Assembly (NCBI RefSeq): GCF_900115195.1
Contig: NZ_FOVO01000005.1
Span: 1-64,000 of the forward strand
Origin: Xenorhabdus japonica
GTDB taxonomy: Bacteria; Pseudomonadota; Gammaproteobacteria; Enterobacterales; Enterobacteriaceae
Direction: 5' to 3'
Length of the DNA stretch: 64,000 nt
The position numbers and the translations under genes are program-made. Numbering within the stretch: the stretch's first letter is position 1; each line of letters opens with the position of its first letter. Below the pieces are notes generated by a model that saw only the letters and a program-made list of their open reading frames with translations, ran no database searches and had not been told where the DNA came from. Of this stretch, positions 1 through 55,407 are shown piece after piece.

Positions 1-334
1 TATAGGCCATAGCGCATTTTCCTTTGGCGAGAAAGATGCCTACTATAGCAACTGACCACCTTTTTCAGAAATTGCACCTATCATGCGAATCCAAGTTTTA
101 TAATCTATGAAGCAGCTCAGAAAGGTAATGCGCCATCAGCGATTATTTGTAACAATGTAGATCCCATCTTATTTGAATCTGCAATGATTATTGATATTCC
201 CTGATTTGATCAATTTCAAGATAATGTATTAAATATTTTTAGTAATAATAGCACCGTAATCATCAACGGTAAATCAATAGAAACTTTCTGAATAATCTCT
301 GATACAGTTACAAATTGGTTGTTCTACAACTAAT
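1..334 (+). pseudogene. decayed coding remnant, unidentified
   Basis: No intact gene is visible. Positions 2-52 read as a short open stretch in one frame (GHSAFSFGEKDAY...), and from about 90 to 291 another frame reads NPSFIIYEAAQKGNAPSAII followed by an in-frame stop and then more protein-like sequence ending STVIINGKSIETF. The switch of frame and the internal stop suggest a gene broken by small indels, entering from the left edge. I do not recognise the family. It could also be chance open sequence in AT-rich DNA. Confidence 0.3.
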
Positions 335-694
335 CTACAACATATTACTTTGTAATATCTGACTCTTAACCCAATATTTTTCTTGACATATATTATGAAA
401 ATTCTTTTCGCGCGGAGTAATTAAAAATCCGTTACTATCCAGTACCTTATAACTCATCCATTTCTCTTGGCATAACTCTTCAGAAGATTCATTATCCTCT
501 TTTTCAGACTCTTCCAGATAAAGAATACTTACCCCGTTATCAAACATATAAACAACTTCCTTATCTTCAAGGATCAAGTTTTCATCCGTTAAAAAATTAT
601 TTTTTTCATTTTTTGAAATGATCTTAACAGGCGAAGATAATGATTTTATAGCCAAAATATAAATTAATAAAGATTGCGTCATTTCACTATCCAT
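335..694 (-). CDS. hypothetical protein, 119 aa
   Basis: This is a small acidic protein of 119 residues that I do not recognise. It starts at an ATG preceded by a purine-rich AGAGAG, which could serve as a ribosome binding site. There is no clear signal peptide. The first 20 or so residues are hydrophobic (QSLLIYILAIKSL) but lack a lipobox or a positive N-terminus. Two CQEK motifs recur in the C-terminal half (CQEKWMSY and CQEKYWVK), which hints at an internal repeat. It is divergent from the UGSC-like gene across a 171-bp gap. Its AT-rich composition matches the rest of the accessory block. No function can be assigned. Confidence 0.5.
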   Translation of the reverse strand: MDSEMTQSLLIYILAIKSLSSPVKIISKNEKNNFLTDENLILEDKEVVYMFDNGVSILYLEESEKEDNESSEELCQEKWMSYKVLDSNGFLITPREKNFHNICQEKYWVKSQILQSNML

Positions 695-865
695 CTCTCT
701 AAAATTTTTAATAGTATATCATACTAAAATTGGAAACATAACTTCATGTTAAATTAAGTGATGTCAGATGTCAGATATTTGATACATTATGACAGAATTT
801 AGATATTAATTAAGATAGCGTTATTCTACGATACTGTAAAAGATAAAAACAATTTGGAGACGATC

Positions 866-2548
866 ATGACTAATGATAATGATTATTGGACTTATGATCC
901 TAGAGGAAATCTGGCTTGTGAAGTTATTAAACTGGCTAAGAGAGTTAGTATTTCAGAACACAAAAACAGAGAGATATTATTTTTTGATAATACCAAACTT
1001 AGTTTTTGCAACTATAGCCAAATTTACAAAAGCATTATAAACATTTTCAAAGAAAGAGACATAATAAATATCAAATACGTCTGCCAATCTGTTCGAGGAA
1101 CCATGACGCAACAGATTAGAGAGCTGGCTTCAGAATTATCAAAGAATAACTACTCTGCTGCAATAATCGCCCTGGCAGATATGGGAACTTCAGTAATGAC
1201 AACCATTCTGGCTGGTGAATTAGAGAAAAAAGGAATACCCGCATTATTAATTACTTCACCTCCAGGCAATTATTTAGCAGAACATGTCGCATTTTATCGA
1301 TTTGGTAAGTTGTGTATTTGCCATATAGATATATATCAAGCAAGTAAAATAGAAGAAATAGAGAATGAAATTGAGAAACAAAAAGAATATATCATTAGTT
1401 CTCTGACTAAAAATGAAGTTGAATTAGATAAGTTATCCATATTAAAACCTAAAATGGATTTAGATAAAGTAAACTCAGATAAAAAAGAAATCCGACTTAT
1501 AAACTCAGATGAATTAATGAAGGAATATGATAATCTTTCTATTGGTGATGGATTACCTATAATACCACCGACACAGGAAAGATATATCCAAATGCAGCAA
1601 TATTGCCAGGAGCCAGTAGACAAAGTAGTTATTCCGGAAGCTGGCCCCTCAGGACAGAATATTACTATTAATGATATTATTATTAACAGTATTCTGGCAG
1701 GTTGTGAACCTCAATATTTACCTATTATCATTGCAACATTTTATGCAATGGCAGAAAGTAAATTTAATTTCCAGCAATCAATTACCACTTCTTACAACGG
1801 TGGAAACCTTGTTCTCGTCAGTGGGCCAATAGCCAAAGAAATAGGAATGAATTCGGGGCAAGGATGTTTAGGACCGGGATTTCGGGCAAATGCCACCATC
1901 GGAAGAGCAGTTAATTTAACAATTTTAAATGTCTGTCGGGCTTACCCGGGAAAAGCTGATTTAGGTTGTTTGGGATCTCCCGCTGAATTTACCTATTGTT
2001 TTGCAGAAAGTATAGAGAATAGCCCATGGGAAACCATCAATGAAGAAAATTATGACAAGGAAATTACAACGGTTTATCTCATGAAGGGAGAACCTCCTAC
2101 AGATGTTGTGGATTTCTTAAGTCAGGATGCCGATAGTTTATTATCTGTCATTATTGATAGTGCAACTCATCTTGGGCGAATGAATGCCTATGTACCGGGT
2201 CGGATAATGGTTATTTTGACACCTGACCATGTTAAAATTTTAACGAACTCAGGATGGACAAAAAATGGTCTTCGACAATATTTACATGAGGAAATTTATA
2301 ATCTCCGTTCTGATGTTGATGGAAAAGGAATAGTCCCTGTCAGACCAAAGCAATTCTCTGAGCGAGAGAAAATACCCGCAACACGCTCACCACTTGATAT
2401 TGATTTAGTTGTTGCCGGAGGTCGTGGGGGGCATTCAGCCATTATTGCCAGTTGGGGGCTTTATTGTGATGCAGTATTAAAACCATTAACTTTACCTTCA
2501 GGAAAATTAGCAAAATCCATTACTGACTTTTACGTTCAAAAAGACTAG
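866..2548 (+). CDS. UGSC-like two-domain protein, possibly redox-related
   Basis: About 560 residues. The N-terminal half (about 1-170) resembles the UGSC domain known from some bacterial selenoproteins: a DNTKLS segment early on, then a central ALADMGTS segment followed by the helix TTILAGELEKKGIPALLITS. The C-terminal half begins with GDGLPIIPPTQERY and includes NSGQGCLGPGFRANATIGRA and GSPAEFTYCFAE, which match the second domain often fused to UGSC proteins. In the family the central motif is usually D-(U/C)-G-S-C; here it is D-M-G-T-S, so the redox pair is absent. ATG 866 is chosen because GGAGA lies 5 nt upstream; an in-frame TTG at 854 has no such site. The enolase-like gene follows after 12 nt, suggesting one operon. 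The biochemical role of the family is not known to me. Horizontal acquisition is inferred from AT-richness. Confidence 0.6.
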   Translation: MTNDNDYWTYDPRGNLACEVIKLAKRVSISEHKNREILFFDNTKLSFCNYSQIYKSIINIFKERDIINIKYVCQSVRGTMTQQIRELASELSKNNYSAAIIALADMGTSVMTTILAGELEKKGIPALLITSPPGNYLAEHVAFYRFGKLCICHIDIYQASKIEEIENEIEKQKEYIISSLTKNEVELDKLSILKPKMDLDKVNSDKKEIRLINSDELMKEYDNLSIGDGLPIIPPTQERYIQMQQYCQEPVDKVVIPEAGPSGQNITINDIIINSILAGCEPQYLPIIIATFYAMAESKFNFQQSITTSYNGGNLVLVSGPIAKEIGMNSGQGCLGPGFRANATIGRAVNLTILNVCRAYPGKADLGCLGSPAEFTYCFAESIENSPWETINEENYDKEITTVYLMKGEPPTDVVDFLSQDADSLLSVIIDSATHLGRMNAYVPGRIMVILTPDHVKILTNSGWTKNGLRQYLHEEIYNLRSDVDGKGIVPVRPKQFSEREKIPATRSPLDIDLVVAGGRGGHSAIIASWGLYCDAVLKPLTLPSGKLAKSITDFYVQKD

Positions 2549-2560
2549 TTGAGAATATTT

Positions 2561-3796
2561 ATGGCTAAAATAATTGATATTATTTCACGCGAAGTATTTG
2601 ACTCAAGAGCAGATATTACGTTAGAAGTTGAAGTAATCCTTAATACAGGAAATAGAGGTCGCGTAATTATTCCAACAGGAAGTTCAATAGGAAAATATGA
2701 AGCAATTGAAGTTCGTGACAATGATAAAAATAGATTTGATGGAAAAGGAGTAAAATGTGCCATTGATATTATTAATAAAATAATTAAACCAAAAATATGT
2801 GGTTTATCGCCTTTCGAACAGGAATCAATTGATAATATTTTAATTGAACTGGATGGAACTAATAATAAAAGTCACTTAGGTGCCAATTCTATTTTAGGTG
2901 TCTCTTTAGCTGTAGCTCAATCTGCTGCGATTGAGAAAAACGTTTATCTCTATGAATATCTTAAGAAAGATGACGATCTTTTTATTCCTCAACCAATTTT
3001 TTCTATGCTGTCTGGGGGAAGGCATGGTGATGGGAATTGTGATTTTCAAGATTTTCAAATTATTGTCTCAAATAAAACAAATTTAAAGGATTCCATGCAG
3101 ATTGGAAAAAACATCTATCTTAAACTTCGTGATATTCTGCTAAAAAGCAACATGTGTATAGGCGTTTCTGGTACAGGTAGTTTTATGCCCTCATTAAAAT
3201 CGAATGAAGATGGCTTATTATTACTAATGGAAGCTATATATAATGCAGGTTATGAAGTTGGAAAAGAAGTCAATTTAAGCATGGATATTGCCGCTGAAAT
3301 GTTTTTTAAAAATGGGAAATACCATCTTGCAACCGACGGTAATATTCTATCCACAGATGATTTTGTTACTTATTTAAAAGATATTTGCAATAAATTTCCT
3401 ATTTCATTAATTGAAGATCCTTTAGCTGAAGATGATTTCAAAGGATGGATTGCTCTTTCACAGGCTGTTGGTAAAAGAATTGAACTAGTTGGTGATGATT
3501 TATTCACAACCAACATTGAGCGATTTAAAGACGGTTTATCTAAAGGTATCGCTAATTCTATACTAATTAAACCCAATCAGATTGGAACAGTAACTGAAAC
3601 AATTAACTTGGTATCTTATGCTAAACAAGTTGGTTATAAGACTATTCTTTCCAGACGTTCTGGGGAAACAGAAGATACAAGTATAGCCGATTTAGCGGTA
3701 GCTTTAAAAACAGATAAAGTTAAATTTGGTTCTTTTGCCAGAACAGAGTCTCTGGCTAAATACAATCGCCTATTAAGAATTGAAGAAAAACTATAG
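2561..3796 (+). CDS. enolase-superfamily paralogue with altered active site
   Basis: 411 residues, close to the usual enolase length. The fold signatures are clear: EVFDSRADITLEVEV near the N-terminus, metal ligands in MDIAAEMFF, LIEDPLAEDD and LVGDDLF, the lysine in LIKPNQIGTVTET, and RRSGETEDTSIADLAVA. Compared with the housekeeping enolase at 15355-16656, the catalytic acid segment GDEGGYAP is replaced by SGTGSFMP, the active-site His in SHRSG is Arg, and GGEHADNN is GGRHGDGN. Mg2+ binding is probably retained but ordinary 2-phosphoglycerate dehydration is doubtful. Known enolase paralogues with other chemistry include carboxyphosphonoenolpyruvate synthase of phosphinothricin biosynthesis. 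ATG 2561 aligns with the enolase N-terminus; TTG 2549 is less likely. It is probably co-transcribed with the upstream UGSC-like gene. Confidence 0.8.
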   Translation: MAKIIDIISREVFDSRADITLEVEVILNTGNRGRVIIPTGSSIGKYEAIEVRDNDKNRFDGKGVKCAIDIINKIIKPKICGLSPFEQESIDNILIELDGTNNKSHLGANSILGVSLAVAQSAAIEKNVYLYEYLKKDDDLFIPQPIFSMLSGGRHGDGNCDFQDFQIIVSNKTNLKDSMQIGKNIYLKLRDILLKSNMCIGVSGTGSFMPSLKSNEDGLLLLMEAIYNAGYEVGKEVNLSMDIAAEMFFKNGKYHLATDGNILSTDDFVTYLKDICNKFPISLIEDPLAEDDFKGWIALSQAVGKRIELVGDDLFTTNIERFKDGLSKGIANSILIKPNQIGTVTETINLVSYAKQVGYKTILSRRSGETEDTSIADLAVALKTDKVKFGSFARTESLAKYNRLLRIEEKL

Positions 3797-3850
3797 TATA
3801 TATAGCTATTATAGCGGGAATGATAATGTTTTAGAGCTGCTTATTTTTGT

Positions 3851-3882
3851 TAAAATGATTATGTAACCACATAATCATTTTA
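3851..3882. terminator. bidirectional terminator between enolase-like gene and araC-type gene
   Basis: A perfect inverted repeat with two 14-bp arms (TAAAATGATTATGT and its complement) around a 4-base loop, flanked by T/A runs on both sides. It lies between two convergent genes and probably ends both transcripts. Confidence 0.75.
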
Positions 3883-3892
3883 ATGATGACCT

Positions 3893-4747
3893 TTATGAAT
3901 TCAATTTCTTATATCTGCTTGGCGTAATATTTAATCTTTCTCTAAAAAAGGAAATAAATGCGCTAGTTGATGAAAAGTCTAAAATATAAGCAACCTCTGT
4001 TATTTTCTTACCTGAAAGTAATAAATTTATCGATAGAGTCAATCTATATTTTTGACGCCATTGTTGATAATTCATTCCCGTTTCTTTGATAAATAATCTA
4101 TGAATAGTTCTTTCTGAGGCTCCAACGATAGTTATAAATTTATTTAATTTTGGGGGTAATAGCTCTTTTTTAATAAATGAAGAAAGTATATTATTAACTC
4201 TATAATCATGTGGGATTTCAGGAAGTTTATTTTCTTTTATAATTGAAGATAAATTTTTTATTAAAATGGACTGCAAATGATATTCTATTCCTACATTCCA
4301 ATTAGAATTGAATGACATGTCACATATTGATTCAATAATCTCGTGCATAAGCGACGTGGCATTGTAAATTTTCACTTCTTTAGGAAGTTGGGGGAAAATT
4401 TCCTGATCAATATAAATTGCTCTGAATTCAGCTTCATTTTTTAAAGTAACTTCGTGAGGAGTACCAGCAGGTACCCATACGATTTGATTAGCTAAAATAT
4501 CATATGTGGTGTCTGTTAATATTAGTTTTGCCATACCACTATTTAGAGATATCAACATTCCTTTTTGATGTGTGTGTATTTTGTCTCTTAATGATCGACT
4601 ATCTTTACTAATAAATTTAGCTCGGATCGGTACAATGCAGGCAGTTATAGTATCGGGATCAAAATATTCATTTAGTAGTTCTGGATTGTTAAATATTTGT
4701 TTGGATATTTTTGCCACTTTTAACCTCACAATATCGTTTAACATCAT
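3893..4747 (-). CDS. AraC-family transcriptional regulator
   Basis: 284 residues. The N-terminal half is a cupin-type sensor domain: HTHQKGMLISLNSG and WVPAGTPHEV are typical of the beta-barrel. The last 100 residues form the double helix-turn-helix: ASERTIHRLFIKETGMNYQQW, then GKKITEVAYILDFSSTSAF and FRERLNITPSRYKK. The architecture matches the NimR/YeaM type of AraC regulator with a cupin sensor. Two ATG codons lie at 4747 and 4744, after a GTGGGA; either may be used. It is convergent with the UGSC-like/enolase-like pair and is a plausible regulator of that pair, although no operator was identified. The 255 bases upstream (4748-5002) show no other gene. Confidence 0.85.
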   Translation of the reverse strand: MMLNDIVRLKVAKISKQIFNNPELLNEYFDPDTITACIVPIRAKFISKDSRSLRDKIHTHQKGMLISLNSGMAKLILTDTTYDILANQIVWVPAGTPHEVTLKNEAEFRAIYIDQEIFPQLPKEVKIYNATSLMHEIIESICDMSFNSNWNVGIEYHLQSILIKNLSSIIKENKLPEIPHDYRVNNILSSFIKKELLPPKLNKFITIVGASERTIHRLFIKETGMNYQQWRQKYRLTLSINLLLSGKKITEVAYILDFSSTSAFISFFRERLNITPSRYKKLNS

Positions 4748-5002
4748 TCCCACATAAAAAATTTTTCATACCACTCTTCTGTCAGATTTACATTATTTTT
4801 TAAAAAAATCTACTAACTGTTTCAAATAATAATGAAATGGCATCAGAATAGTGGTATCAGAAAAAATAATGGAAATATATTTATGAGAAGATTGCAAATA
4901 TAGATAACAAATAGCCATTCAAAGCCAAAGTATTGGCTAAGAGCTTGACTAAGAATGACTATTAGTGAAGGTCAATTAATGAAGGTTAATAACTAATAAA
5001 GA

Positions 5003-6907
5003 TTACTCATCTTCCAAATAAGTGTAACCATATAAGCCGTTTTCAAACTCTTGCAGGAACTGTTCCTGTAAATTTTCGTCCAGATCAGCCGATTTCACCT
5101 GATCACGGAAACGAGTCAACAGTATCTGCGGCTCAAGTTTGACGTATTGCAGCATATTGGCGACAGAATCACCTTCTTCGCTTTGCTGATAAGTTACTTC
5201 ACCATTTTCTGCAAAATAAACATCAATGGCTGCTGTATCACCAAACAAGTTATGCATGTTGCCCAGAATTTCCTGATAGGCCCCGACCATAAAGAAACCG
5301 ATCAATGGCGGGTTTTCTGGATCATAAGCGGGCATTGGCATTGTTGTCGCCACACCATCACCATCAACATAATGGTCAATCGTACCGTCAGAATCACAGG
5401 TGATATCCAACAGAACGGCACGGCGATCCAGCGGCTTATCCAGCCCTTCAATCGGCAAGACCGGGAAAAGCTGATCAATTCCCCACGCATCCGGTATTGA
5501 CTGGAATAACGAGAAGTTCACGTAAAATTTATCTGCCATGCGCTCTTGTAATTCATCAATGATCGGACGATGGGCACGATTGCTTGGATCAAGATCCTGC
5601 TGAATATGGCGACAGATATTTAAATACAGTTCTTCCGCCCATGCACGCTCTGACAGATTCAACATACCGTGAGCATACTGAGTATGAACATCATGCAGAT
5701 CAAACTGGCTATCATGCAACCATTCACGCAGGGAGCGGCGGCTGCCGTCAGATTGCATCTCCGTCCATGTTTTCCACAGACTGGTCAGGGGACGCGTTGC
5801 ATTTTCTGCCGGTGGCGTTGTTTCAGTGAATTCATTGCGTTCAACCCCAATCACATTGGAGACCAAAACTGTATGATGAGCTGTCAATGCACGACCGGAT
5901 TCCGTAATAACTGTCGGGTGAGACAGGCCGTGTTCTTCACATGCATCACCAATTCCCCAAATAACGTTATTTGCGTATTCATTCAAACCGTAGTTAACCG
6001 AGCATTCTGACTGAGAGCGTGTGCCTTCATAATCGACACCTAATCCACCACCTACGTCGAAGCACTGAATATTGACACCCAGTTTAGACAGCTCGACATA
6101 AAAGCGTGCAGATTCACGTACACCCGTTGCCACATCACGAATATTCGCCAATTGGGAACCCAAGTGGAAATGCAGCAATTGCAAACTATCCAAGCGCCCT
6201 ACTGCACGCAACATCTCAACCAATTGCAATACCTGCGCCGCAGCCAAACCAAACTTGGATTTCTCTCCACCACTGGACTGCCATTTTCCCGCTCCTTGTG
6301 AAGCCAAACGTGCCCGCACCCCAAGACGTGGTATCACATTGAGGCGCTCAGCCTCTTCCAGCACCATAGCGATTTCAGACATCTTCTCGATAACCAGATA
6401 CACCTTGTGTCCCAGCTTTTCACCGATCAGCGCCAGACGAATATATTCCCGATCCTTATAACCATTGCAAACAATCACAGTACCTGTCATGCCTGCATGA
6501 GCCAAGACTGCCATTAATTCCGCTTTGGAACCTGCTTCCAATCCAACTGGTTCATCAGCGTTTGCTAATGTTTCAATGACACGGCGCTGCTGGTTCACCT
6601 TAATCGGGTAAACAAGGAAGTAATCCCCTTTATACCCATAAGATTCACGGGCGCGCTTAAACGCCCCATTAATCGAACGCAAACGATGTTGCAAGATCTG
6701 GGGAAAACAAAACAATGCCGGCAAACGCAATTGTTCTTTTTCTTCCTGAACTTTCTTCACCAGATCGGCGAGTTCAATTTGAGCTCCCGGTAAATCAGGG
6801 TTTGGGCAAACACTGACATTACCCAGATCATTGACATAGTAATAGTTGCCGCTCCAGTATGCGATGTTATAGGTCTGACGCATTTTGCGAGCGATATTAT
6901 CATTCAT
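5003..6907 (-). CDS. speA: biosynthetic arginine decarboxylase
   Basis: Pyridoxal-phosphate enzyme converting arginine to agmatine, the first step of the agmatine route to putrescine. The protein (634 residues) matches E. coli SpeA almost throughout: [17 protein letters not shown] contains the PLP lysine, HFHLGSQ and [12 protein letters not shown] bind cofactor phosphate, and DITCDSDG plus [12 protein letters not shown] lie in the C-terminal barrel. It ends [11 protein letters not shown] like E. coli. ATG 6907 is chosen because AAAGGAG lies just upstream; the open frame reaches a TTG at 6955 without a comparable site. The gene is divergent from metK across about 670 bp, as in other Enterobacterales. 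Confidence 0.96.
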
Positions 6908-15354: not shown

Positions 15355-16701
<1,347 letters not shown>

Positions 16702-44304: not shown

Positions 44305-44319
44305 TTGCAAGAGGTAATT

Positions 44320-46056
44320 TTGGATTTATTTGAATCTTATTTCCAGCAGGAACGTCATTACCTGCGACAACTCGAACAACTGACCGCTGAAGAAAAACCG
44401 CATCTGGCGGACAGCCTCAGCGGCCATGACCCGGATATTGAGCGGCTGAATGAGGGCTTTGCGGCATTAATGGGTCGTCAGCGCCAGAAAATCGATGATG
44501 CCTTCCCTGAAATCACGCTGCCCTTGTTGCAACGTTTGCAGGCCCAGACTGTCAAGGGCATTCCTGCTACCAGTGTGGTGCAATTTGACGGCGGAACCGA
44601 TGTTGATTTTTCCTGTACCCTGCCGCGGGGCACCACAGTCACAACAAGCAGTGGTGTACCGTTTATCACCAGCCGGACCTGCGCGATTGAACCGCTGGCT
44701 CTGGTGGCGCGGCATTTAACCCATCAGCTGGACACCACCCGCCTGACCCTGACCTTTCAGTACATCGGCAAGGAAGACCACTGGCCGATTAAACCCTTGA
44801 GCCTGTTTCTCAGTCCCGATGAAGCCGTGGCGGATACGCTGATGTTGGCTCTGTGCCACCATTTCAGAAACGCCGAACTACACCACAACGGGCAGGTCTG
44901 GCCGGCTGAACCGCTGGGTTTTTCACCATTGTCAGGCACTGACCGGCTGGTGCTTTCTCCGCCGATTGCCGTTGCCAGCAACTGGGCACCGCAGATGCTG
45001 ATGGAATCCCTTTACCTACCGCATGTGCACCATTTCCTGACGCTGGCTTTGCCCACGGTGATGAGCAGTCGCCTGTCCATGACAGAAAGCCAACAGTTCA
45101 GTATTACCCTTATCTTCGATGATATGTTGCCGCTGTCTGAATCGCAGCTGGCAGAGGCCTTCCGGCTGCACTGTGTGCCGGTAGTAAATCTGGAACGCAA
45201 AGCACAAGTCACGTTCCCCTTTGCCCCAGAAACAGCCCGCTACCCACTGCCCTTACCAAACGGACAAGCGCTATTGCACGTCACCCGTCTGGAACTAAAA
45301 GATGAACCGGAAGAAGCGCGCGGGCAGCGCTGCACCTTTGCCCCCATCAGCCAGCTCAGCCATTTTGTCCGCGACACAGGGGAAGAACAGTGGTTCTATG
45401 CCCTTGATATCACCCGAGATGCGCTGGGGCGTCTGGAATATGCGCTGGTATTCTACGACAGCCACGCCCGGCTGATGGCACAACCCCCGGAACGGGAATT
45501 TACCTGCCATTTTGTGGCATTTGACAGCCGTCTGCCGGAGCTGGTTGCGGGCGATATCTGCCACGCGGATGAAAACATTCCCGATGGCTTGCAGGTCAAA
45601 AATCTTACTCCCTGCTCACTGAGCTATCCGCCGGTGACCGACAGCCACCGCCATTGGGCGCTGCTGTCCCATTATTCCGCCAGCCTGTTCTGGCTGCATT
45701 CAGTGGACGCGCTCCGGTAGCTTTTACGGGATTACGATTTTTATCCCGACCTTGATCGGCCGATCCACCGTGATATCCAGCGCATGACCGCCGCCATAAT
45801 GGCGATTCAGTCTACGCCCGGAGACCGGATTTACCGCGGTCAGCCCTATCGCTGCCTGCATATTGAACTGAGCCTAGATGATAGCACTTTCGCCAGTGCC
45901 GGTGAGTTGTTTCGCTTTGCCAACACCCTGTACCAGTTTTTACCGTTCTGCCTCTCACAGGATATGCGTCTGCGGATGACGGTCACCGGCACCTCCTCCG
46001 GTACCGTCTGGTGTCTGTCTCCCAGCCCCCTTCAGGGCTATCGTCCCATCATGTAA
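44320..46056 (+). pseudogene. tssF: T6SS baseplate protein TssF, interrupted by amber codon
   Basis: TssF is a wedge component of the type VI secretion baseplate. The frame from 44320 to 46056 (about 578 codons) matches the family: DLFESYFQQERHYLRQLEQ, DPDIERLNEGFAALMGRQRQ, DDAFPEITLPLLQRL at the N-terminus, and after the break PGDRIYRGQPYRCLHIEL, FANTLYQFLPF and an MTVTGTSSG end. A single TAG at 45718-45720 splits it between HSVDALR and LLRDYDFYPD with no shift of frame. A TTG at 44320, preceded by AAGAGG, best fits the start. Its usual partner tssG and other structural genes are not present. It is probably a decayed remnant of a cluster that left vgrG and its cargo. Confidence 0.85.
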
Positions 46057-46068
46057 GGAAACGTAATA

Positions 46069-47958
46069 ATGGATGGATTAGTCTTTACCTGCCAGATTGG
46101 CTCGCTCACCCCAACCACCTTTCAGGTGGTGGATTTCAGTTTACAGGAAGGGTTGTCCCAGCTTTATCACCTAAGCCTGAACGTGGTCAGTGCCCTTGAT
46201 AACATCGTCCTCAATGACCAGTTGGGTGCCTATGCCTCACTCGCCATTTTGCGCAACGGCAAAGTGGAGCGCACCGTCAACGGCATTGTGGCCGGAGCCT
46301 CACAGGGCAATACCGACGGGCGGCAAACGTTTTATTCCTTTATCATCCGTCCGGAAATGTGGCGCATGACCCTCAATCAGGACAGCCGCCTGTTCCAGCG
46401 CCTGTCCGTACCGGATATCCTGAAGCAACTGCTCAAAGAGCACCGCATCAAGTCGGGCAACAAGTTCTATGACGATGCCGACCACCATCCGGTGCGGGAA
46501 TACACCACCCAGAAACGCGAGTCAGCCTATGATTTCTGGTGTCGGCTGGCCGCCGAAGAAGGGATGATTTTTTGGTTTGAAGAAGAGCAGTTGTTTTACA
46601 GCGACTCCCATCTGGGGATGACCGCCGGTCTGACCCTGACCTACAACGCCCAGCACAATACCGATGATACCGACACAACCGCATGGCAGTGGCAATACGG
46701 TGAATTCCTCTGTCCGGATGAGTATCTCCACAAGGATTACAACTACTTGCGTCCTTCCCAGCCCCTGCAACCCAAATCAGTATTGCCGAACGGTGCCGGA
46801 CACCCGGTATTTGAAAGCTACGGCCGCTTCCCGTGGAGCAAAGAAGGCCAGCCGCTCGGGGATACACGGTTAAATCAGCTTAACAGTGAAAGCAAGCTCG
46901 GCTCAGCGAATACCAACTGTATTCAGTTGCGCCCCGGTAAAATCTTTACCCTACAATCCCACCCTGTTGCCGCCATGAATGACCGCTGGCAGGTAGTGAC
47001 CGTGACCCATCACGGCTCACAGCCTCAGGCCGCTGGTATTGCGGGAGAAGGCACAACCCTGACCAACAATGTCACCTTTATTCCCGGGCGAGATGACTGG
47101 CGTCCGCCGTACCGTTACAAACCGATGGCAGACGGGGATGAACTGGCAACAGTCGTCGGCCCTGAAGGGGAGGAGATTTTTGTCAACGAACACGGTGCGA
47201 TTAAGGTGCACTTCCACTGGAACCGCTACGACCAACCGGGGGATGGTTCTTCCTGCTGGGTGCGAGTGGCACAGGGCTGGAACGGCAACGGCTTTGGTTT
47301 TATGGCTATCCCCCGTATCGGGCAGGAAGTGATTGTCTCTTATCTGAATGGCGATATTGACCGCCCGATAGTAACTGGCTGCAACTACAACGGGCGCAAC
47401 CGCCCACCATTGGATTTACCGGCCGAGAAAACCCGCACCACCCTCAAAACCCACACTCACAAGGGCGAGGGCTTCAACGAACTGCGTTTTGAGGATGCGA
47501 AGGGCAGCGAAGAAGTGTTTATCCATGCCCAGAAGGACATGAACACCAAAGTGCTCAATGACCGTGACACGCATGTACTGGCGAACCACAGCGAAACCGT
47601 GGAGAAAAACCAGACCATTAAGGTTAACCAGCACAAGCAAGAAACGGTGAAGCTGACCAGCAATGAAATCGTCGGCATCTCCCGTACCCTGACAGTCGGT
47701 GCCGGTTATGCCATTACCGTCGGGGCAGGCATGAATACCGCCGTGGCCTTAAGCCAGACAGAGCAGGTCGGTAGCCACAAGTCCATTACCGTCGGCAATA
47801 CCCTGTCCATTAATGCCGGTGACGTGATTGAACTGACATGCGGCAAAAGCACCCTACGCATGGACAGTGCCGGACGCATCACCATTCAGGGCAGCGAATT
47901 CAAGTTTGAGGCCAGCGGCCCGGTACAAATCACTGGCAAGGATATTGACCTGAACTAA
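46069..47958 (+). CDS. vgrG: type VI secretion tip protein VgrG (TssI)
   Basis: Trimeric spike that carries effectors at the tip of the secreted Hcp tube. 629 residues. Order: N-terminal gp27-like region (FTCQIGSLTPTTFQVVDFSL; YTTQKRESAYDFWCRLAAEE; GMIFWFEEE), OB-fold/gp5-like region (VVGPEGEEIFVNEHGAIKV, SCWVRVAQGWNG, IPRIGQEVIVSYLNGDIDRP), then a beta-helix (NHSETVEKNQTIKVNQHK, TVGNTLSINAGD). It ends after the helix, so there is no evolved C-terminal effector domain. The cargo is probably the PAAR-like and Rhs proteins encoded downstream. Confidence 0.95.
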   Translation: MDGLVFTCQIGSLTPTTFQVVDFSLQEGLSQLYHLSLNVVSALDNIVLNDQLGAYASLAILRNGKVERTVNGIVAGASQGNTDGRQTFYSFIIRPEMWRMTLNQDSRLFQRLSVPDILKQLLKEHRIKSGNKFYDDADHHPVREYTTQKRESAYDFWCRLAAEEGMIFWFEEEQLFYSDSHLGMTAGLTLTYNAQHNTDDTDTTAWQWQYGEFLCPDEYLHKDYNYLRPSQPLQPKSVLPNGAGHPVFESYGRFPWSKEGQPLGDTRLNQLNSESKLGSANTNCIQLRPGKIFTLQSHPVAAMNDRWQVVTVTHHGSQPQAAGIAGEGTTLTNNVTFIPGRDDWRPPYRYKPMADGDELATVVGPEGEEIFVNEHGAIKVHFHWNRYDQPGDGSSCWVRVAQGWNGNGFGFMAIPRIGQEVIVSYLNGDIDRPIVTGCNYNGRNRPPLDLPAEKTRTTLKTHTHKGEGFNELRFEDAKGSEEVFIHAQKDMNTKVLNDRDTHVLANHSETVEKNQTIKVNQHKQETVKLTSNEIVGISRTLTVGAGYAITVGAGMNTAVALSQTEQVGSHKSITVGNTLSINAGDVIELTCGKSTLRMDSAGRITIQGSEFKFEASGPVQITGKDIDLN

Positions 47959-47973
47959 GGAGCATATACCGAG

Positions 47974-49194
47974 ATGGAATTTCGTAACCTGACGCCCTTT
48001 GCGGTGATGAACTACCAGATGTTTGATATCGAAGATACCGAGCATCACGTCGCAGTGATGAAAATGGGTTACCAGTTATTGCCCGCCGGACAGGGAGAAT
48101 ATCTCGCCGAGCTACTGCCCGCACCACCTTTATGTTTACAGGATGAATACCGCGGACAGATGAATTCTTCACAGGTGCTACAGGAAAGTGATCTTGCACC
48201 GTTTAAACCACGCTGCGATGTGATTGTTAACGGCACAGCGTATACGCCTGACGGTCGCCCCTGTACTGAATTTCCCGTGCGATTGCAGGTAAAGAACAAG
48301 CAGGGTCAGACTCTGCTCGACAAAACCCTGACCGTCACCGGTGAACGGGAATTTATCCGTGACATCAACGGCAACTGGAAACTGACTGAGCCAAAACCCT
48401 TTACTACTCTGCCGCTGGATTATCGCTACGCCTTTGGTGGTGAATGCAAAATTCATGCAGATGATAAGGCCAACGAATACCTCAAGGAAAGTGATCGGCT
48501 GACACCAGAACAACGTCAGCAGTATCCAGACGGGGAAAATGCGCCTGTTGCTCATGCGGTTTGTGAGACCAATCCACTGGGAACGGGGTTTATCACACCG
48601 TGGTACGCTAACGCCAAACAACCCACCCGTTACCCTGCGCCACGCATTATCCGACCGGATGCCCCCTTCACTGCCCAGCATTTTGCGTCTCAACTGACCG
48701 ATACATTATCGGCTGATACGCCGGCTTGTCAGCCACAAGGAATGGGATTTATCGGCCGTCCGTGGCTACCCCGCCGTCAGCTTGCCGGCACTTACGATGC
48801 CGAATGGCTGGAGCACCGCCATCCTTATCTGCCGAAAGATTTTAACTTTGGCTACTGGAACGGTGCACCGGCTGACCAGCAGATTGACTGGACTGAAACC
48901 GATATCGCCATCACCCTGAGCGGCCTGACACCCAACGGAGACTTACATATCACCCTGCCGGGGCATCGTCCGTTTATCCTGCTGCGAATGCACAACGGCA
49001 TGCTGCTGCCCATTCCGATGCGCCCTGACACCCTCATTATCGACAGCGAAGCAAGGACGCTGCATATGACCTGCCGATTGAGCTTCAAAGCATCCCTACC
49101 CGTACGGGTCGCCGAAGCCCGGTTTGAAATCAACCCGGATGCCCCTTTGCTCAAACTGGCACCACTGGAAGAGGAGAATACGCATGGCGGATAA
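47974..49194 (+). CDS. DUF2169 T6SS accessory/adaptor protein
   Basis: 406 residues. The N-terminus MEFRNLTPFAVMNYQMFDIE and later PLDYRYAFGGE, NPLGTGF and APRIIRPD are typical of DUF2169, a family found between vgrG and PAAR-type effector genes. Members act as chaperone-like adaptors for loading effectors onto VgrG. AAGGAG precedes the ATG; the end overlaps the PAAR-like gene by 11 bp, indicating tight coupling. Confidence 0.88.
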   Translation: MEFRNLTPFAVMNYQMFDIEDTEHHVAVMKMGYQLLPAGQGEYLAELLPAPPLCLQDEYRGQMNSSQVLQESDLAPFKPRCDVIVNGTAYTPDGRPCTEFPVRLQVKNKQGQTLLDKTLTVTGEREFIRDINGNWKLTEPKPFTTLPLDYRYAFGGECKIHADDKANEYLKESDRLTPEQRQQYPDGENAPVAHAVCETNPLGTGFITPWYANAKQPTRYPAPRIIRPDAPFTAQHFASQLTDTLSADTPACQPQGMGFIGRPWLPRRQLAGTYDAEWLEHRHPYLPKDFNFGYWNGAPADQQIDWTETDIAITLSGLTPNGDLHITLPGHRPFILLRMHNGMLLPIPMRPDTLIIDSEARTLHMTCRLSFKASLPVRVAEARFEINPDAPLLKLAPLEEENTHGG

Positions 49195-49540
49195 CTACAT
49201 CGCCCGTACCGCCGGCACATGGATGATTATCGGCATGCTGCCGGACGTGTGCAAAACCCCAATGGGTTCCTCCACACCACCGATTCCCTATCCAGTGGTG
49301 GCGAAACTGGCAGACAGCTCAGCCCCGGAGAAAACCGTGCGCGCCAACGGCAAACCCGTGGTGGTCTTTGCCCAGAGTTTTGTACCGCAGACCCTCGGTG
49401 ATCAACCCGGTGTGGCGAATGGCGTTAAAAGCGGCACGGTGGGGGGTAAGTGCCACCCGAAAGATCACACCCGCACGGTACGCGCCGGCAATAAACTGGT
49501 GCTGCGCCACGGGGATAAGTTTTGGATGAATGGGGCATAA
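49184..49540 (+). CDS. PAAR-like (DUF4150) spike-tip protein
   Basis: 118 residues. MIIGMLPDVCKTPMGSSTPPIPYPV and KCHPKDHTRTVRAGNKLVLRHGDKFWMN, split here as motifs PDVCKTPMG, PPIPYPV and VLRHGDKFWMN, are characteristic of DUF4150, the PAAR-like protein that caps VgrG. ATG 49184 has GAGGAG upstream and overlaps the end of the DUF2169 gene. The separate PAAR gene explains why the following Rhs protein has no PAAR of its own. Confidence 0.88.
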   Translation: MADNYIARTAGTWMIIGMLPDVCKTPMGSSTPPIPYPVVAKLADSSAPEKTVRANGKPVVVFAQSFVPQTLGDQPGVANGVKSGTVGGKCHPKDHTRTVRAGNKLVLRHGDKFWMNGA

Positions 49541-49552
49541 GGAAGAGAAACC

Positions 49553-52500
49553 ATGTCAGAAAGGATTATTGTCACACTGAATAGCGCCGATGTTAAAGCC
49601 GAAAAATATTGTAAAGAATTTAACATCCGCACACAGGCTGAGGCGGAGCAAGCATTAAACAATGCTGATTCGTTATACCGACAAAGTTCTCGCTTTTACG
49701 GTGATTACGGAAACGATCCCGAATTAGACGTTTACTATAATCAGGCAGACGCTGACTTCGAAGCCCAATCTTTTAAAAAAACAGCTCAAGATACCGTTGA
49801 AAAATTCAAAAGCGGTGAGTTTCCAAAGAAAGAATGGGAAGAAGAGAAAGAAGAGGACGATCATCCCGGACCCAATGCAGCGTTGCCTAAAAAGCCACGA
49901 GACGACAGCCAGACCGGTGAAGGTAACACGCTGGGTAGTGTTGTCGGGCAAGCTGGTGCCGCCCAAAACACACCTCATGATGCTAATCCCGCCGTTAAAC
50001 CTGAGGCTCCGGCGGAAAAAGGGATGTGGGATAAAACCGTTGACTGGTTTCAGGAAACCGCCGATGACATCAAAAAATGGGCTAATGAGAGTAAACATAA
50101 CCTAGAGGCGGCTTGGGATAATCCGGGAGCAGCCGTTATCGGAGCAGGAAAAGAGCTATGGAATACCATTCCGGAAATGGCAGAACTCCTTGGCAAAGGA
50201 GCGATTATAGCCGCAACAACCCCCTCCGTTGTAGTTGAACAGGCATTGGGATATATGGGAGTCGCTCCTGTCGGAATTTCTGACCTTCAGCAAAAGGCAG
50301 TTGATATGGTCAATGCTGATGCAATTAAGATGGAAATGAAAAGCGATGCCGAGGAAGGTGGTGCCTTGATCCTTACTGGAGTTTCTTCTGCTACAGGCAT
50401 TGGCGGATTTATCAAAGGGGATGCTAAAGCAGGAGCCAAAGTGGGGACAAAAATCAAAAAACCATTACAAAACAAAAAACAACCGCAAAAAGAGACTCAA
50501 CAACATAATGATGACGCTACCCCGTCAGGCAACAAAGAAGGCAGTTGCAATGGCACCTGTAACGTAAAAGGTGAACCTGTCGATATGGCCACCGGTGACT
50601 TCCTGCAAGTCTGGCCGGTTATTGCCATTCCGGGTTTATTGCCCATTACCCTAACCCGCACCTATCGCTCCACTTCTAGGTTCAATGGCCTGTTTGGCCC
50701 TAAATGGGCTGATGACTGGTCACGCCAGTTGGTACTAGCCGACGGTAAAGTAAATTTCACTGATGCAGACGGGGTGATCTATGATTTCAACACTCCGGAT
50801 AATCAAGTACTCGCCCGTAACCAACATATTCCCCATTACCTGCTGACTGGAGAATTAACGGGTGAACTGAAACTAACCGATCGCCAGTCCCAGCTTACCT
50901 ACCATTTCAATCACGCCGTCGGGAACACCCGCAAACTGTCGGCTATCACCGATCGGCGCCAGAATGCTATCCGGTTTATCTACGATAAACAGTCACAACT
51001 GATTGAAGTGGCACGCACAGATGGTTTCCGTCTGATCTTCGGTTATCAGCGTCAACAGCTCCAGACGGTGGATTATCTTGAACAGCACAAGCAACAGCGG
51101 CTGGTGACCTGCCACTATGATCCACAGGGCTACCTGAACGAATGTGAGGCTTTTCAGCACAATCACCTGTGGCATGAATATGACTCTCAGGGACGGATGA
51201 TCCGCTGGCATGATACCGACCAGACCGATCTGAACCTCACTTATGATGAACAAGGGCGGGTTCTAAGTACAACTTCACCCAGTGGCTATTGGAACGACCG
51301 TTTTCTCTATGATGATAGCGCCCGTATCACTACTTATATAGATGTGGAGGGCGGTAAAACCCAACATCACTATGATCATAACGGACTGGTTCTCCGTGAA
51401 GTTGATCCATTGGGACGCATCACCCGCCGCCAGTGGCGTCACAGCCAAATCGTCTGGGAGTCCGATCCGTCAGGCGGTATCACCACGTTCGATTACAACC
51501 CCGATGGCGCCCTGACCGGAATAGTACTGCCGACCGGAGAAACCTTCGCGTATGGCTATGATGAACACGGGCAACTGACAGAGAGCATCCTGCCCACCGG
51601 GGAATGCTGGCAGTTTCATTACGATGAGCAGGGCAATCTGACAGCCCTGACCAATCCGCTCGGTCATAAAGAAGAGTACCAATACGGCATCCACGGTGAA
51701 TTACGCCAGTGCTTGTTGCCTGATAGTCGCCAGTGGCATTACGCCTATGACGAACAGCAGCGGCTGGCGGCGGTGATGACTCCGGACGGTCAAACAACCA
51801 ATCTGCAACTGGACGAACTAGGCCGTCTGCGTCAAATTACCGATGCCCTCAAGCACCAAACCCGTTACCGCTACAGTGACGCCCACGCCAGCCTCAATGG
51901 CAGCCTGACCGAAGTGGAACTGCCGGATGGTGCTACCCAGCAACTCACCTACGACAGTGAACGGCGAGTTGTAGCAGCTACCGATGGTGAAGGCCGTACC
52001 ACCCGTTACCAGTACGGGGCTTTTGACCTGCTTAATCAGGTTATCCGCCCTGATGGCACCATCCTGAAATTTGGCTATGACCGTTTAACCCGCCTTAGTA
52101 CGGTTACCGCCTCCACCGGTGAAACTTACCGCTATGAGCGGGATGTCGCCGGACAGATTATCCGCGAAACCGACTTTACCGGACGTACTATCGATTATCA
52201 GTACGATAAGCTGGGACGCCGCATTCAGGCACAATACCCAGATGGTCAACAGTTACGCTGGCACTACTCTGCCGCTGGTTCACTGGCTAAACAGGAAAGC
52301 TGGCAGCCGGAAGATAACCAGCTAGTACTCAAAGCAACCACAACCTACGAATACAATAACCGTCATCAGTTAGTTAAAGCCATCAATGATGATGCGATAG
52401 TGGAATATGAGTACAACAAAACCACTGGCCTGCCCACCTGCGAACGTATCAACGGACGAGAGATTACTCGCGAATGGGATAGCCTAACCGGACGCCCGGT

Positions 52501-54097
52501 CAGCGAGAGTATTGATGGCAACACCCTACACTTTGGCTATAATCTGCCGGGGGCGCTGAACCATTTTCAGTTCAACCAGCATGCGCCATTAACCTTTCAG
52601 CATGATGCGCTGGGACGGGAAACGGTACGTGAAAGTGCCAACGGCTTTATCCTTGCCAGCCGCTACACTGCGACGGGGTTGCTGGCGCACCAATCTGCGG
52701 GCCAGGCGACTAAACTGTTCAGGGAAACGCTGGCACAGAATGACCCGCACTTCCCGCCACAAGCAACCGCGGTAAACCGTAGCTGGCAATATGATCGTGC
52801 CCATAACGTCAGGGTGATTGATGACAGCCGCTGGGGACAAACCCGCTATCGTTACAACGTCAACGATCAGATATTGCATACCTTGTTCGATGGCTCCCGC
52901 CCGTATGAAGAACAGTTCCGTTATGATGCCAACGGTAACCTGAGCCAGCATATTCCGATGGCTGCTCAGGACGCGATGACACAAATTAACCAGCGCCAGC
53001 AGGCCGGACGGGTGGTACAGCGGGGCAATATTCGTTATCGCTATGATGACAACGGGCGGCTGGTCGAAAAAACCGAGCAGCGTGACGGTTTCCGCCCGCA
53101 AATCTGGCGCTACCGCTGGGATGTGCTGAATCAACTGACGCAATGTGAAACCCCGGACGGCTCGCGCTGGCACTATCAATACGATGCGTTTGGGCGGCGT
53201 ATCCGCAAGCTGAAAGTGCACGATGGGAAACTAGCGGCTGCTAATTTGCAGCGCTGGCTGAATGGTAAACCGGATTTGGCTCCCAAAGTCAATGCGACTG
53301 CTGGGTATGATTATCTGTGGAGCGGCGACCAGCTTATTGAGGAAACACCGCTTTATGCGGATGGCACGCCAGTGGAAGATCAGCGCATCCGCTGGCTCTA
53401 CGAACCGGGCACCCTGACACCGTCAGCACGTTTTGAGTGCGGCAAGCTACACTATATTGTCAGTGACCATCAGGGCACACCGCGTGAGATGTTGAACGAG
53501 GAAGGCGGGCTGGTCTGGGCACAGCGGCTGACCACATGGGGTAAGGCGGAACGTTCACAGGTCATTGCTTCCAATGATGCGGATTATCATGTTAACTGTA
53601 ACCTACGGTTTATGGGACAGTACGAAGATCAGGAAAGTGGGTTATACTATAACCGTTTTCGGTACTATGATCGGAATACGGGACAGTACCTGACCCCCGA
53701 CCCCATCGGGCTGCTGGGCGGGGTGAATCCGTATGGCTATGTCGATAATCCGGTCAATTTTGTTGATCCTTTCGGGCTGGAAAAATGTCCAACAATTAAA
53801 GACTCATTCGAGCAAGCAAGAAATAGGGCTTTAGCTTGGCTTACGGATAGAGGATTTAAAGCAGAAAAAGTGAATACTGGGAAATTCGGAGCTACAAAAA
53901 ACCAACCTGTAGGAATGACTACAATGGATGGAAAAACTGGTTTCAGGATTGAATATGATGAAAGAAGTGGTGCTCATATCAATGTCTTTAGTGGAAAAGA
54001 TAAAGGTGAACATTTCCTTTTTGATGCAACAGAAAAAACCGTTACTAAACTACAAAAATTATTTGATCACCCATCAAAACCACGGAGAGGATCATGA
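49553..54097 (+). CDS. rhs: Rhs-family T6SS effector with C-terminal toxin tip
   Basis: 1514 residues. Residues 1-340 are a variable N-terminal region with acidic coiled parts and a hydrophobic stretch (AIIAATTPSVVVEQALGYM). GEPVDMATGDFLQVWPVIAIPG marks the DUF6531 start near residue 340, and Tyr-Asp repeats run to about 1360, forming the cocoon that encloses the toxin. The Rhs core end reads YYNRFRYYDRNTGQYLTPDPIGL, with DPIGL and DPFGL flanking the autocleavage site near residue 1406. The last 105 residues (starting EKCPTIKDSFEQARNRALAW) are AT-rich and form the released toxin; DGKTGFRIEYDE, GAHINVFSG and GEHFLF with two conserved-looking His suggest a nuclease-like fold, but the family is not certain. 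The immunity gene overlaps the stop. It is probably loaded through the DUF2169 and PAAR-like proteins. Confidence 0.93.
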   Translation: MSERIIVTLNSADVKAEKYCKEFNIRTQAEAEQALNNADSLYRQSSRFYGDYGNDPELDVYYNQADADFEAQSFKKTAQDTVEKFKSGEFPKKEWEEEKEEDDHPGPNAALPKKPRDDSQTGEGNTLGSVVGQAGAAQNTPHDANPAVKPEAPAEKGMWDKTVDWFQETADDIKKWANESKHNLEAAWDNPGAAVIGAGKELWNTIPEMAELLGKGAIIAATTPSVVVEQALGYMGVAPVGISDLQQKAVDMVNADAIKMEMKSDAEEGGALILTGVSSATGIGGFIKGDAKAGAKVGTKIKKPLQNKKQPQKETQQHNDDATPSGNKEGSCNGTCNVKGEPVDMATGDFLQVWPVIAIPGLLPITLTRTYRSTSRFNGLFGPKWADDWSRQLVLADGKVNFTDADGVIYDFNTPDNQVLARNQHIPHYLLTGELTGELKLTDRQSQLTYHFNHAVGNTRKLSAITDRRQNAIRFIYDKQSQLIEVARTDGFRLIFGYQRQQLQTVDYLEQHKQQRLVTCHYDPQGYLNECEAFQHNHLWHEYDSQGRMIRWHDTDQTDLNLTYDEQGRVLSTTSPSGYWNDRFLYDDSARITTYIDVEGGKTQHHYDHNGLVLREVDPLGRITRRQWRHSQIVWESDPSGGITTFDYNPDGALTGIVLPTGETFAYGYDEHGQLTESILPTGECWQFHYDEQGNLTALTNPLGHKEEYQYGIHGELRQCLLPDSRQWHYAYDEQQRLAAVMTPDGQTTNLQLDELGRLRQITDALKHQTRYRYSDAHASLNGSLTEVELPDGATQQLTYDSERRVVAATDGEGRTTRYQYGAFDLLNQVIRPDGTILKFGYDRLTRLSTVTASTGETYRYERDVAGQIIRETDFTGRTIDYQYDKLGRRIQAQYPDGQQLRWHYSAAGSLAKQESWQPEDNQLVLKATTTYEYNNRHQLVKAINDDAIVEYEYNKTTGLPTCERINGREITREWDSLTGRPVSESIDGNTLHFGYNLPGALNHFQFNQHAPLTFQHDALGRETVRESANGFILASRYTATGLLAHQSAGQATKLFRETLAQNDPHFPPQATAVNRSWQYDRAHNVRVIDDSRWGQTRYRYNVNDQILHTLFDGSRPYEEQFRYDANGNLSQHIPMAAQDAMTQINQRQQAGRVVQRGNIRYRYDDNGRLVEKTEQRDGFRPQIWRYRWDVLNQLTQCETPDGSRWHYQYDAFGRRIRKLKVHDGKLAAANLQRWLNGKPDLAPKVNATAGYDYLWSGDQLIEETPLYADGTPVEDQRIRWLYEPGTLTPSARFECGKLHYIVSDHQGTPREMLNEEGGLVWAQRLTTWGKAERSQVIASNDADYHVNCNLRFMGQYEDQESGLYYNRFRYYDRNTGQYLTPDPIGLLGGVNPYGYVDNPVNFVDPFGLEKCPTIKDSFEQARNRALAWLTDRGFKAEKVNTGKFGATKNQPVGMTTMDGKTGFRIEYDERSGAHINVFSGKDKGEHFLFDATEKTVTKLQKLFDHPSKPRRGS

Positions 54098-54531: not shown

Positions 54532-54542
54532 AAAATACAAAA

Positions 54543-54581
54543 CCGGAAAGATCCCCGTGATCTTCCGGCTTTCTTCTTTTT
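54543..54581. terminator. terminator at start of first repeat copy
   Basis: CCGGAAAGATC-CCCGT-GATCTTCCGG followed by CTTTCTTCTTTTT. It ends the rhs-immunity transcript and, read the other way, lies just after the symE-like gene. It also marks the left boundary of the 6738-bp repeat unit. Confidence 0.85.
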
Positions 54582-54603
54582 AAGAGCGGCTCACTCCCTG
54601 CCC

Positions 54604-55375: not shown

Positions 55376-55407
55376 TCTATCCCCCAAAAAATGCTTGCTT
55401 TATATCG

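What the first reader, a model, noticed from the sequence alone, without database searches (positions are those of the whole stretch)
866..4747. UGSC-like protein paired with a catalytically altered enolase and an AraC regulator
Two adjacent genes on one strand, 12 bp apart, encode a UGSC-like two-domain protein and an enolase paralogue with a changed active site, with an AraC regulator facing them. The composition is far more AT-rich than the core genome. Enolase paralogues elsewhere perform specialised C-P or carboxylate chemistry, so the pair may define a small uncharacterised pathway. I know of no description of this combination.
Basis: partly seen in the sequence, partly recalled or inferred. 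Interest (0 to 1): 0.72.

Follow-up and report, generated by a model that had tools for sequence, protein, structure and literature searches.

The report
Mobile cassette with a repurposed enolase
Two side-by-side genes in this bacterium, one a copy of a sugar-burning enzyme with key catalytic parts swapped and the other a selenium-free relative of a little-known selenium protein, belong to a small gene package found again in marine bacteria, and they probably make or break down an unknown small organic acid.

Summary
Window 866-2548 and 2561-3796 encode, 12 bp apart, a UGSC-related two-domain protein and an enolase paralogue (EnoP). An AraC regulator (3893-4747) converges on them. EnoP keeps the enolase metal ligands, both lysines and the phosphate ligands. 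It has lost the residues that act on the 3-OH (yeast E168->D, E211->T, H373->R). The partner's N-domain is a UGSC domain whose Sec/Cys motif has become MGTS. Its ~340-residue C-domain belongs to a widespread unnamed family, mostly encoded beside UGSC selenoproteins.

The pair is not a one-genome oddity. It recurs in a sister genome (between speA and speB), on a Vibrio europaeus plasmid and in a fourth genome, presumably Vibrio. In the last two it is part of an 8-gene cassette: two-subunit aconitase X, small ORF, UGSC-like, EnoP, AzlC, AzlD and AraC. One copy lies between two IS6-type transposases. dN/dS is below 0.2 for all four window genes.

Best reading: a mobile, regulated pathway for a small carboxylate, in which EnoP still enolises its substrate but no longer dehydrates 2-phosphoglycerate. 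The substrate is unknown. Carbon-phosphorus chemistry is not supported. Automatic annotation misnames EnoP 'phosphopyruvate hydratase'.

The parts
335..694 (-). ORF119, small conserved accessory protein of unknown function
   Evidence: Homologues at the same place and orientation in G002 (89% identity) and on the V. europaeus plasmid (38%); also in L156. Pairwise dN/dS 0.17.
866..2548 (+). UGSC-like fusion protein, 560 aa
   Evidence: ORF; homologues over the full length at 95%, 64%, 47%, 45% and 35% identity in G002, V. europaeus, Sporomusa termitida, L015 and L017; dN/dS 0.106; AlphaFold2 pLDDT 85.4, pTM 0.87.
866..1450 (+). N-terminal UGSC domain without the Sec/Cys motif
   Evidence: hhalign against 16 UGSC sequences: probability 98.8, E 8e-17.
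1181..1192 (+). MGTS codons in place of UGSC
   Evidence: Sequence; alignment.
1496..2545 (+). C-terminal domain (CTD) of a widespread unnamed family; cysteines 280, 334 and 378 invariant in the 7 aligned Sec-free fusion rows
   Evidence: 584 confirmed relatives in the genome scan, best 80 kept; 69 of these 80 loci have a separate UGSC gene; AlphaFold2 of CTD alone pLDDT 94.0, pTM 0.93; invariant Cys (one of the 7 rows, L016, is partial).
2561..3796 (+). EnoP, enolase paralogue with altered acid/leaving-group side
   Evidence: Pfam/NCBIfam; residue table; dN/dS 0.062.
3050..3052 (+). codon for D164 (Glu in canonical enolase, yeast E168)
3173..3175 (+). codon for T205 (Glu in canonical enolase, yeast E211)
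3653..3655 (+). codon for R365 (His in canonical enolase, yeast H373)
3893..4747 (-). AraC-family regulator with cupin-like sensor domain; the conserved start may be the GTG at 4717
   Evidence: HTH_18 and AraC_binding; orthologues 95% in G002 and 45% in V. europaeus, both aligning from residue 11.

Best explanation
The window carries a reduced copy (4 of 8 genes) of a mobile metabolic cassette. SHOWN: the UGSC-like and EnoP genes form a conserved, selected pair with a small ORF and an AraC regulator. In two Vibrio-type genomes the same four genes sit with a two-subunit aconitase X and an AzlCD-type permease as one 7.7-kb block, once between IS6-type transposases. SHOWN: EnoP keeps the residues that in enolase bind metal, carboxylate and phosphate and pull a proton from C2, and has changed three residues that in enolase serve the 3-hydroxyl (residue roles recalled). 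INFERRED: EnoP therefore still makes an enolate intermediate but does not dehydrate 2-phosphoglycerate. The His-to-Arg and Glu-to-Thr changes make that side of the pocket more positive, so its substrate probably carries an anionic group (carboxylate, sulfonate or similar) where 2-phosphoglycerate carries OH. INFERRED: the UGSC-like protein is a selenium-free enzyme descended from UGSC/CTD selenoproteins. It acts on the same small carboxylate, with aconitase X supplying a dehydration step in the Vibrio version and AzlCD moving substrate or product across the membrane. AraC switches the operon on when the compound is present.
For: Pair adjacency in 4 of the 7 loci found with the Sec-free full-length fusion: G000, G002, V. 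europaeus plasmid, G1224; no enolase in the other three, L100, L015 and L017. Whole 8-gene block 97.8% identical over 7,717 bp between two genomic contexts; its left end is within 3 bp of the end of one IS, its right end about 85 bp short of the other. AcnX within a few kb of the fusion gene in 3 of those 7 loci, including Sporomusa, a different phylum. dN/dS 0.06-0.17. Residue pattern fixed in the EnoP copies and absent in 5 of 5 canonical enolases. A canonical enolase remains in the same genome (15355-16656). Wider CTD relatives often lie beside carboxylate/acyl genes: of 104 neighbour proteins scanned, TctC receptor 8, acyl-CoA dehydrogenase 6, CoA-transferase III 3, lactate racemase 2, 2-hydroxyacid dehydrogenase 2.
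Against: No substrate or activity is known. AcnX is absent over the cut-off from 30 of 30 genomes of the host genus, so the window version must work without it or use another supply. No enolase and no AcnX was found in any of the 80 wider CTD loci, so these links belong only to part of the Sec-free branch. The two AcnX proteins (Vibrio, Sporomusa) are only 28% identical and need not share a substrate. The neighbour counts are small and spread over 180 families. Enolase residue roles are recalled, not tested.
Confidence: 0.6

Rival explanations
1. EnoP and the UGSC-like protein are pseudoenzymes: EnoP binds PEP or 2-phosphoglycerate and acts as a sensor or scaffold, and the UGSC-like protein is its partner, with no new chemistry.
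For: Loss of E168 and E211 in EnoP and of Sec/Cys in the UGSC domain; these are catalytic or presumed catalytic in the parent families (recalled).
Against: Metal ligands, both lysines and phosphate ligands are all kept; three CTD cysteines are invariant in 7 rows; the cassette carries an unrelated dehydratase and a permease, which suits a pathway.
Confidence: 0.2
2. EnoP is a back-up or conditional glycolytic enolase.
For: NCBIfam 'eno' equivalog 488 bits over a cut-off of 300; annotated 'phosphopyruvate hydratase' on the V. europaeus plasmid.
Against: E168, E211 and H373 replaced in every EnoP copy compared; canonical eno present in the same genome.
Confidence: 0.06
3. The pair takes part in carbon-phosphorus (phosphonate) chemistry, EnoP being like carboxyphosphonoenolpyruvate synthase.
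For: That enzyme is an enolase homologue (recalled; my searches gave no paper that describes it).
Against: No PEP mutase over the curated cut-off in G000, G002 or G1224 (3 of 3 genomes; none of the 14 control genomes passed the cut-off either, so there was no positive control); no phosphonate gene among the 29 features listed around the cassette on the V. europaeus plasmid (that table is incomplete).
Confidence: 0.06
4. EnoP is a decoy or resistant enolase that protects against an enolase inhibitor of the SF-2312 type.
For: A natural phosphonate enolase inhibitor exists (PMC12288639, passages read); the cassette is mobile and carries a permease.
Against: A resistant enolase would be expected to keep catalytic residues; does not explain aconitase X or the UGSC-like protein.
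Confidence: 0.05

Closest known systems
Enolase (phosphopyruvate hydratase)
   Same: Both domains, three metal ligands, two lysines, phosphate-binding Arg/Ser; 43% identity to the window's own enolase, up to 47% to plasmid enolases
   Different: E168->D, E211->T, H373->R; linked to a UGSC-like gene, and to AcnX and AzlCD in the Vibrio-type copies
UGSC (seleno)protein family, PF24696/NF041046
   Same: N-domain homologous by profile comparison
   Different: Sec/Cys motif lost (MGTS); fused to CTD; NCBIfam score 16.7 against a cut-off of 125
UGSC/Unknown_1 fusion of the Global Ocean Sampling study (PMC2398784, passages read)
   Same: UGSC domain fused to a conserved unknown domain, possibly the same CTD (their alignment was not seen). 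Five more distant UGSC-CTD fusions with Sec or Cys at the motif were met here: three in G1084 (UGSC), one in G896 (USSC), one in G1089 (CGLC)
   Different: The window's branch has neither Sec nor Cys at the motif
[quoted passage not shown] PMC5144071, passages read)
   Same: Two-subunit AcnX in the Vibrio-type and Sporomusa versions of the locus
   Different: Absent from the window and, over the cut-off, from 30 of 30 genomes of its genus
Class I fumarate hydratase alpha chain
   Same: Top Foldseek hits of the CTD model, best E 1.1e-4; 7 of 7 hits at E<=0.001 are fumarate hydratases
   Different: For those hits TM-score at most 0.31 by query and 0.36 by target length, Z 5.0 or less for the fumarases in the second aligner; no sequence relationship (hhalign probability 0.1)

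Membership tests
Phosphopyruvate hydratase (enolase) | Enolase N and C domains | tested here: met
   Pfam PF03952 and PF00113
Phosphopyruvate hydratase (enolase) | Metal ligands (yeast D246, E295, D320) and lysines K345, K396 | tested here: met
   D242, E285, D312, K337, K388
Phosphopyruvate hydratase (enolase) | Acid side E168, E211, H373 | tested here: not met
   D164, T205, R365
Phosphopyruvate hydratase (enolase) | 2-phosphoglycerate dehydratase activity | not testable with these tools
   no assay
UGSC (seleno)protein family | Sequence homology over the UGSC domain | tested here: met
   hhalign 98.8%, E 8e-17; curated NCBIfam cut-off not reached
UGSC (seleno)protein family | Sec or Cys in the UGSC motif | tested here: not met
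   MGTS
Class I fumarate hydratase alpha | Fold of the alpha chain | tested here: inconclusive
   Foldseek E 1.1e-4 but TM 0.31-0.36 for the best hit, Z 5.0 or less
Class I fumarate hydratase alpha | Sequence profile match | tested here: not met
   hhalign probability 0.1 against 7 fumarase alpha sequences
Glycine/betaine reductase selenoprotein B (GrdB type) | Curated family score and Sec motif | tested here: not met
   The window protein has no GrdB hit at E<=0.1 and no Sec; only the separate UGSC gene of L003 shows weak sub-cut-off GrdB-type hits
Carboxyphosphonoenolpyruvate synthase | Close sequence relation to a characterised enzyme of this name | not tested
Phosphonate biosynthesis | PEP mutase in the genome | tested here: not met
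   TIGR02320: 121-123 bits against a cut-off of 319.55 in 3 of 3 genomes; no positive among the 14 control genomes

The most novel reading that the evidence does not exclude
A mobile cassette has recruited glycolytic enolase itself, not only the wider enolase superfamily, into a new pathway. With its acid side rebuilt around an arginine, it adds or removes an anionic group other than water at C3 of a PEP-like molecule, working with a selenium-free UGSC fusion enzyme and aconitase X to make and export, or to consume, an undescribed small acid.
Probability: 0.35. Interest if true: 0.8.

Novelty: new variant of a known kind. Interest (0 to 1): 0.62.

Why it matters
UGSC proteins are among the most abundant selenoprotein families in marine samples (PMC2398784, passages) and are listed among selenoproteins whose functions remain largely uncharacterised (PMC13188914, passages). 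This cassette offers a selenium-free version in a small, movable, regulated unit next to better understood enzymes, which makes the function of both UGSC and its CTD partner testable in ordinary laboratory strains. It also shows an enolase lineage with a consistently rebuilt active site that automatic pipelines annotate as glycolytic enolase.

Tried and rejected
Viral contigs: scans with the fused-protein and EnoP alignments gave 53 and 43 pattern matches and no confirmed relative. Fold of the full-length UGSC-like model: no Foldseek hit at E<=0.001; the second aligner lists common Rossmann-like arrangements for residues 28-194. CTD as a fumarase relative: weak fold hint, no sequence support, so not claimed; the rest of the PDB lists shows no clear family. 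CTD profile against PDB sequences: one hit at E 0.22, thioredoxin reductase, taken as chance. Enolase or AcnX next to the general CTD family: 0 of 80 loci; flanks were at most 7 kb and often shorter. An AcnX-like match near the CGLC-type fusion of G1089 (27% over 114 residues, E 1e-4) lies in a 161-aa ORF that does not look like aconitase X by eye; not counted. Shared promoter element between window and V. europaeus upstream of the UGSC-like gene: only short matches, including the ribosome-binding region; nothing claimed. Tandem repeats in 1-5100: none at the default score. Papers: all ten searches were seen as listings, and none lists a paper on the combination; a V. europaeus mobilome paper has no mention of enolase or aconitase in its main text (find only). 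AT-rich composition as proof of recent foreign entry: rejected, since dS between G000 and G002 is like that of the flanking genes.

Rows chosen and dropped: for the structure alignments I picked 43 of the 80 loci by hand; 41 passed the frame and stop check, and 36 and 40 of these were used together with the window, L015, L016 and L017. Of 139 neighbour proteins picked, 104 were scanned.
Full report
What is in the window. The window starts at a contig edge of a 3.56-Mb assembly; 30 genomes of its genus are held. Gene content suggests Xenorhabdus or a near relative; this name is my inference, no tool gave it. The names speA, speB, metK and sprT are also by eye. Four genes precede speA: a 119-aa ORF (335-694, minus), the UGSC-like gene (866-2548), EnoP (2561-3796) and a convergent AraC gene (3893-4747). 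The canonical enolase lies at 15355-16656.

EnoP. It is 43% identical to the window's own enolase and scores above the curated cut-off for 'eno', which is why pipelines name it phosphopyruvate hydratase. It keeps S42, H155, Q163, D242, E285, D312, K337, R366, S367 and K388, the counterparts of yeast S39, H159, Q167, D246, E295, D320, K345, R374, S375 and K396 (yeast numbers recalled), and has D164, T205 and R365 where enolase has E168, E211 and H373. All three changes are present in both Vibrio-type copies and in none of five canonical enolases held; the three solved enolases shown have the canonical residues. From recalled enolase mechanism, K345 takes the C2 proton and E211, E168 and H373 handle the C3 hydroxyl. 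So the enolising half is kept and the dehydrating half rebuilt.

UGSC-like protein. The N-domain is a UGSC domain by profile comparison with MGTS in place of UGSC. In 69 of these 80 loci a separate UGSC gene is found; in 66 of the 69 the matched stretch contains an in-frame TGA and 59 read UGSC exactly. UGSC selenoprotein and CTD are thus mostly a two-gene system. Fusions of the two also exist with the motif intact: three in G1084 (UGSC), one in G896 (USSC) and one in G1089 (CGLC), all about 27-28% identical to the Vibrio protein. The window protein belongs to a closer, Sec-free branch with full-length members in G002, V. europaeus, G1224, Sporomusa termitida, an alphaproteobacterial MAG (L015) and a Chloroflexi MAG (L017), whose motifs read MGTS, MGTS, MGTS, MGTS, MGVA and QGVT. 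A 2008 study reported a UGSC/unknown-domain fusion (PMC2398784, passages). The CTD model is confident (pLDDT 94.0). Its best fold hits are fumarate hydratases of the class I type, but TM-scores are low, the second aligner gives Z 5.0 or less for them and profiles show no relation, so this stays a hint.

Distribution. In the host genus 2 of 30 genomes carry EnoP (880-897 bits against 361 or less for the other enolases), the same two that carry the fusion gene (2 of 60 relatives). In G002 the four genes lie between speA and speB, a 5.2-kb gap. In 22 of the 28 genus genomes without the cassette speA ends within 1.5 kb of speB; in 6 it was not seen within that distance. Elsewhere it is rare. Of 394 genomes of the order only the window's own matched the fusion profile. 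Of 369 of the class six matched: the window's own, two with CTD-only matches (G853, G1067) and three with the distant fusions named above. Of 398 Pseudomonadota five matched the UGSC-like protein, four of them over the CTD only, and only the window's own reached EnoP level (889 bits, next 472). On plasmids, 1118 of 72,556 records hold some enolase match, 1 of them at 60% identity or more; 24 hold a UGSC-like match, 2 over the full length.

The 8-gene cassette. The V. europaeus plasmid carries aconitase X, its swivel subunit, the small ORF, UGSC-like, EnoP, AzlC, AzlD and AraC; the four window genes are there in the same order and orientation at 38, 64, 62 and 45% identity. A search of 196 genomes of the genus of G055, which I guessed to be Vibrio, found one more full copy, G1224 (a second match was a 57-residue fragment). 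There the same eight genes lie between two same-orientation transposase genes, 92% alike in DNA; the left one was scanned and is of the IS240/IS6 type (PF13610). A 7,717-bp block is 97.8% identical to the V. europaeus plasmid, its left end within 3 bp of the end of the left IS, its right end about 85 bp short of the right IS. Two contexts and one block mark the functional unit. In Sporomusa termitida the fusion gene lies near AcnX, with an FAD-dependent oxidoreductase and an MFS transporter. AcnX is missing over the cut-off from all 30 genomes of the host genus; two have short sub-cut-off matches. So the window copy is a reduced version. No enolase lies in the fetched stretches of the Sporomusa, L015 or L017 loci.

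Selection. Between G000 and G002 dN/dS is 0.106 (UGSC-like), 0.062 (EnoP), 0.119 (AraC) and 0.172 (ORF119), against 0.041, 0.018 and 0.166 for speA, metK and sprT; dS of 0.17-0.28 is close to the flanks' 0.13-0.20 (one pairwise comparison). The genes are maintained and were probably already in the common ancestor of the two species.

Mechanism. My best reading is a regulated pathway for a small carboxylate in which EnoP forms an enolate at C2 and eliminates, adds or isomerises something other than water. The new arginine suggests an anionic group. The UGSC-like protein is its pathway partner, probably using the CTD's conserved cysteines. Neighbours of the wider CTD family (TctC receptors, acyl-CoA dehydrogenases, CoA-transferases, lactate racemases, 2-hydroxyacid dehydrogenases) fit carboxylate metabolism, though each count is small and 104 of 139 picked proteins were scanned. 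AzlCD suggests export of a product more than import, from recalled family knowledge. Against this reading: no enolase or AcnX in any of the 80 wider loci, distant AcnX proteins (28% identity), and no direct functional evidence. Carbon-phosphorus chemistry lacks its key enzyme (without a positive control).

Verdict. A real, conserved, uncharacterised cassette; by its residues not expected to be a glycolytic enolase, and not a UGSC selenoprotein; interest moderate to high.

Noticed in passing
54533-57262 and 61271-64000: A 2.7-kb stretch holding much of a primase/helicase-like ORF (by eye) is present twice, 99.8% identical, the second copy cut by the window end; two copies of a mobile-element module.
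   Followed up: partly
44305-54097: Type VI secretion-like genes (TssF-like, VgrG-like) followed by a 1514-aa RHS-repeat protein, after panC; names are by eye, no family search.
   Followed up: no
1-271 and L125:1-840: In the window's genome the stretch between the cassette and speB differs from G002 and looks like degraded mobile DNA; the speB contig (L125) starts with what reads by eye like a transposase end.
   Followed up: partly
L042, L045, L054, L081 and 62 other genome-contig loci: UGSC genes with in-frame TGA near the CTD gene in many uncultured lineages: UGSC selenoproteins are mostly two-gene systems with the CTD protein, whose CTD had no Pfam match in the four proteins scanned.
   Followed up: yes
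L105 (L160), L109 (L161), L110 (L162), L106, L107 (L163): Distant UGSC-CTD fusions that keep Sec or Cys at the motif (UGSC three times, USSC, CGLC); G1084 holds at least three.
   Followed up: partly
L003:1048-2502: CTD protein with a thioredoxin-like N-terminal extension (sub-cut-off Pfam and NCBIfam hits); L005:1444-3027 looks similar by eye. Suggests redox coupling in unfused systems.
   Followed up: partly
L017:1-2758 and L100:20635-21732: Corrinoid/methyltransferase-type genes near two of the Sec-free fusions (L017 by eye, L100 by its annotation as uroporphyrinogen decarboxylase family).
   Followed up: no
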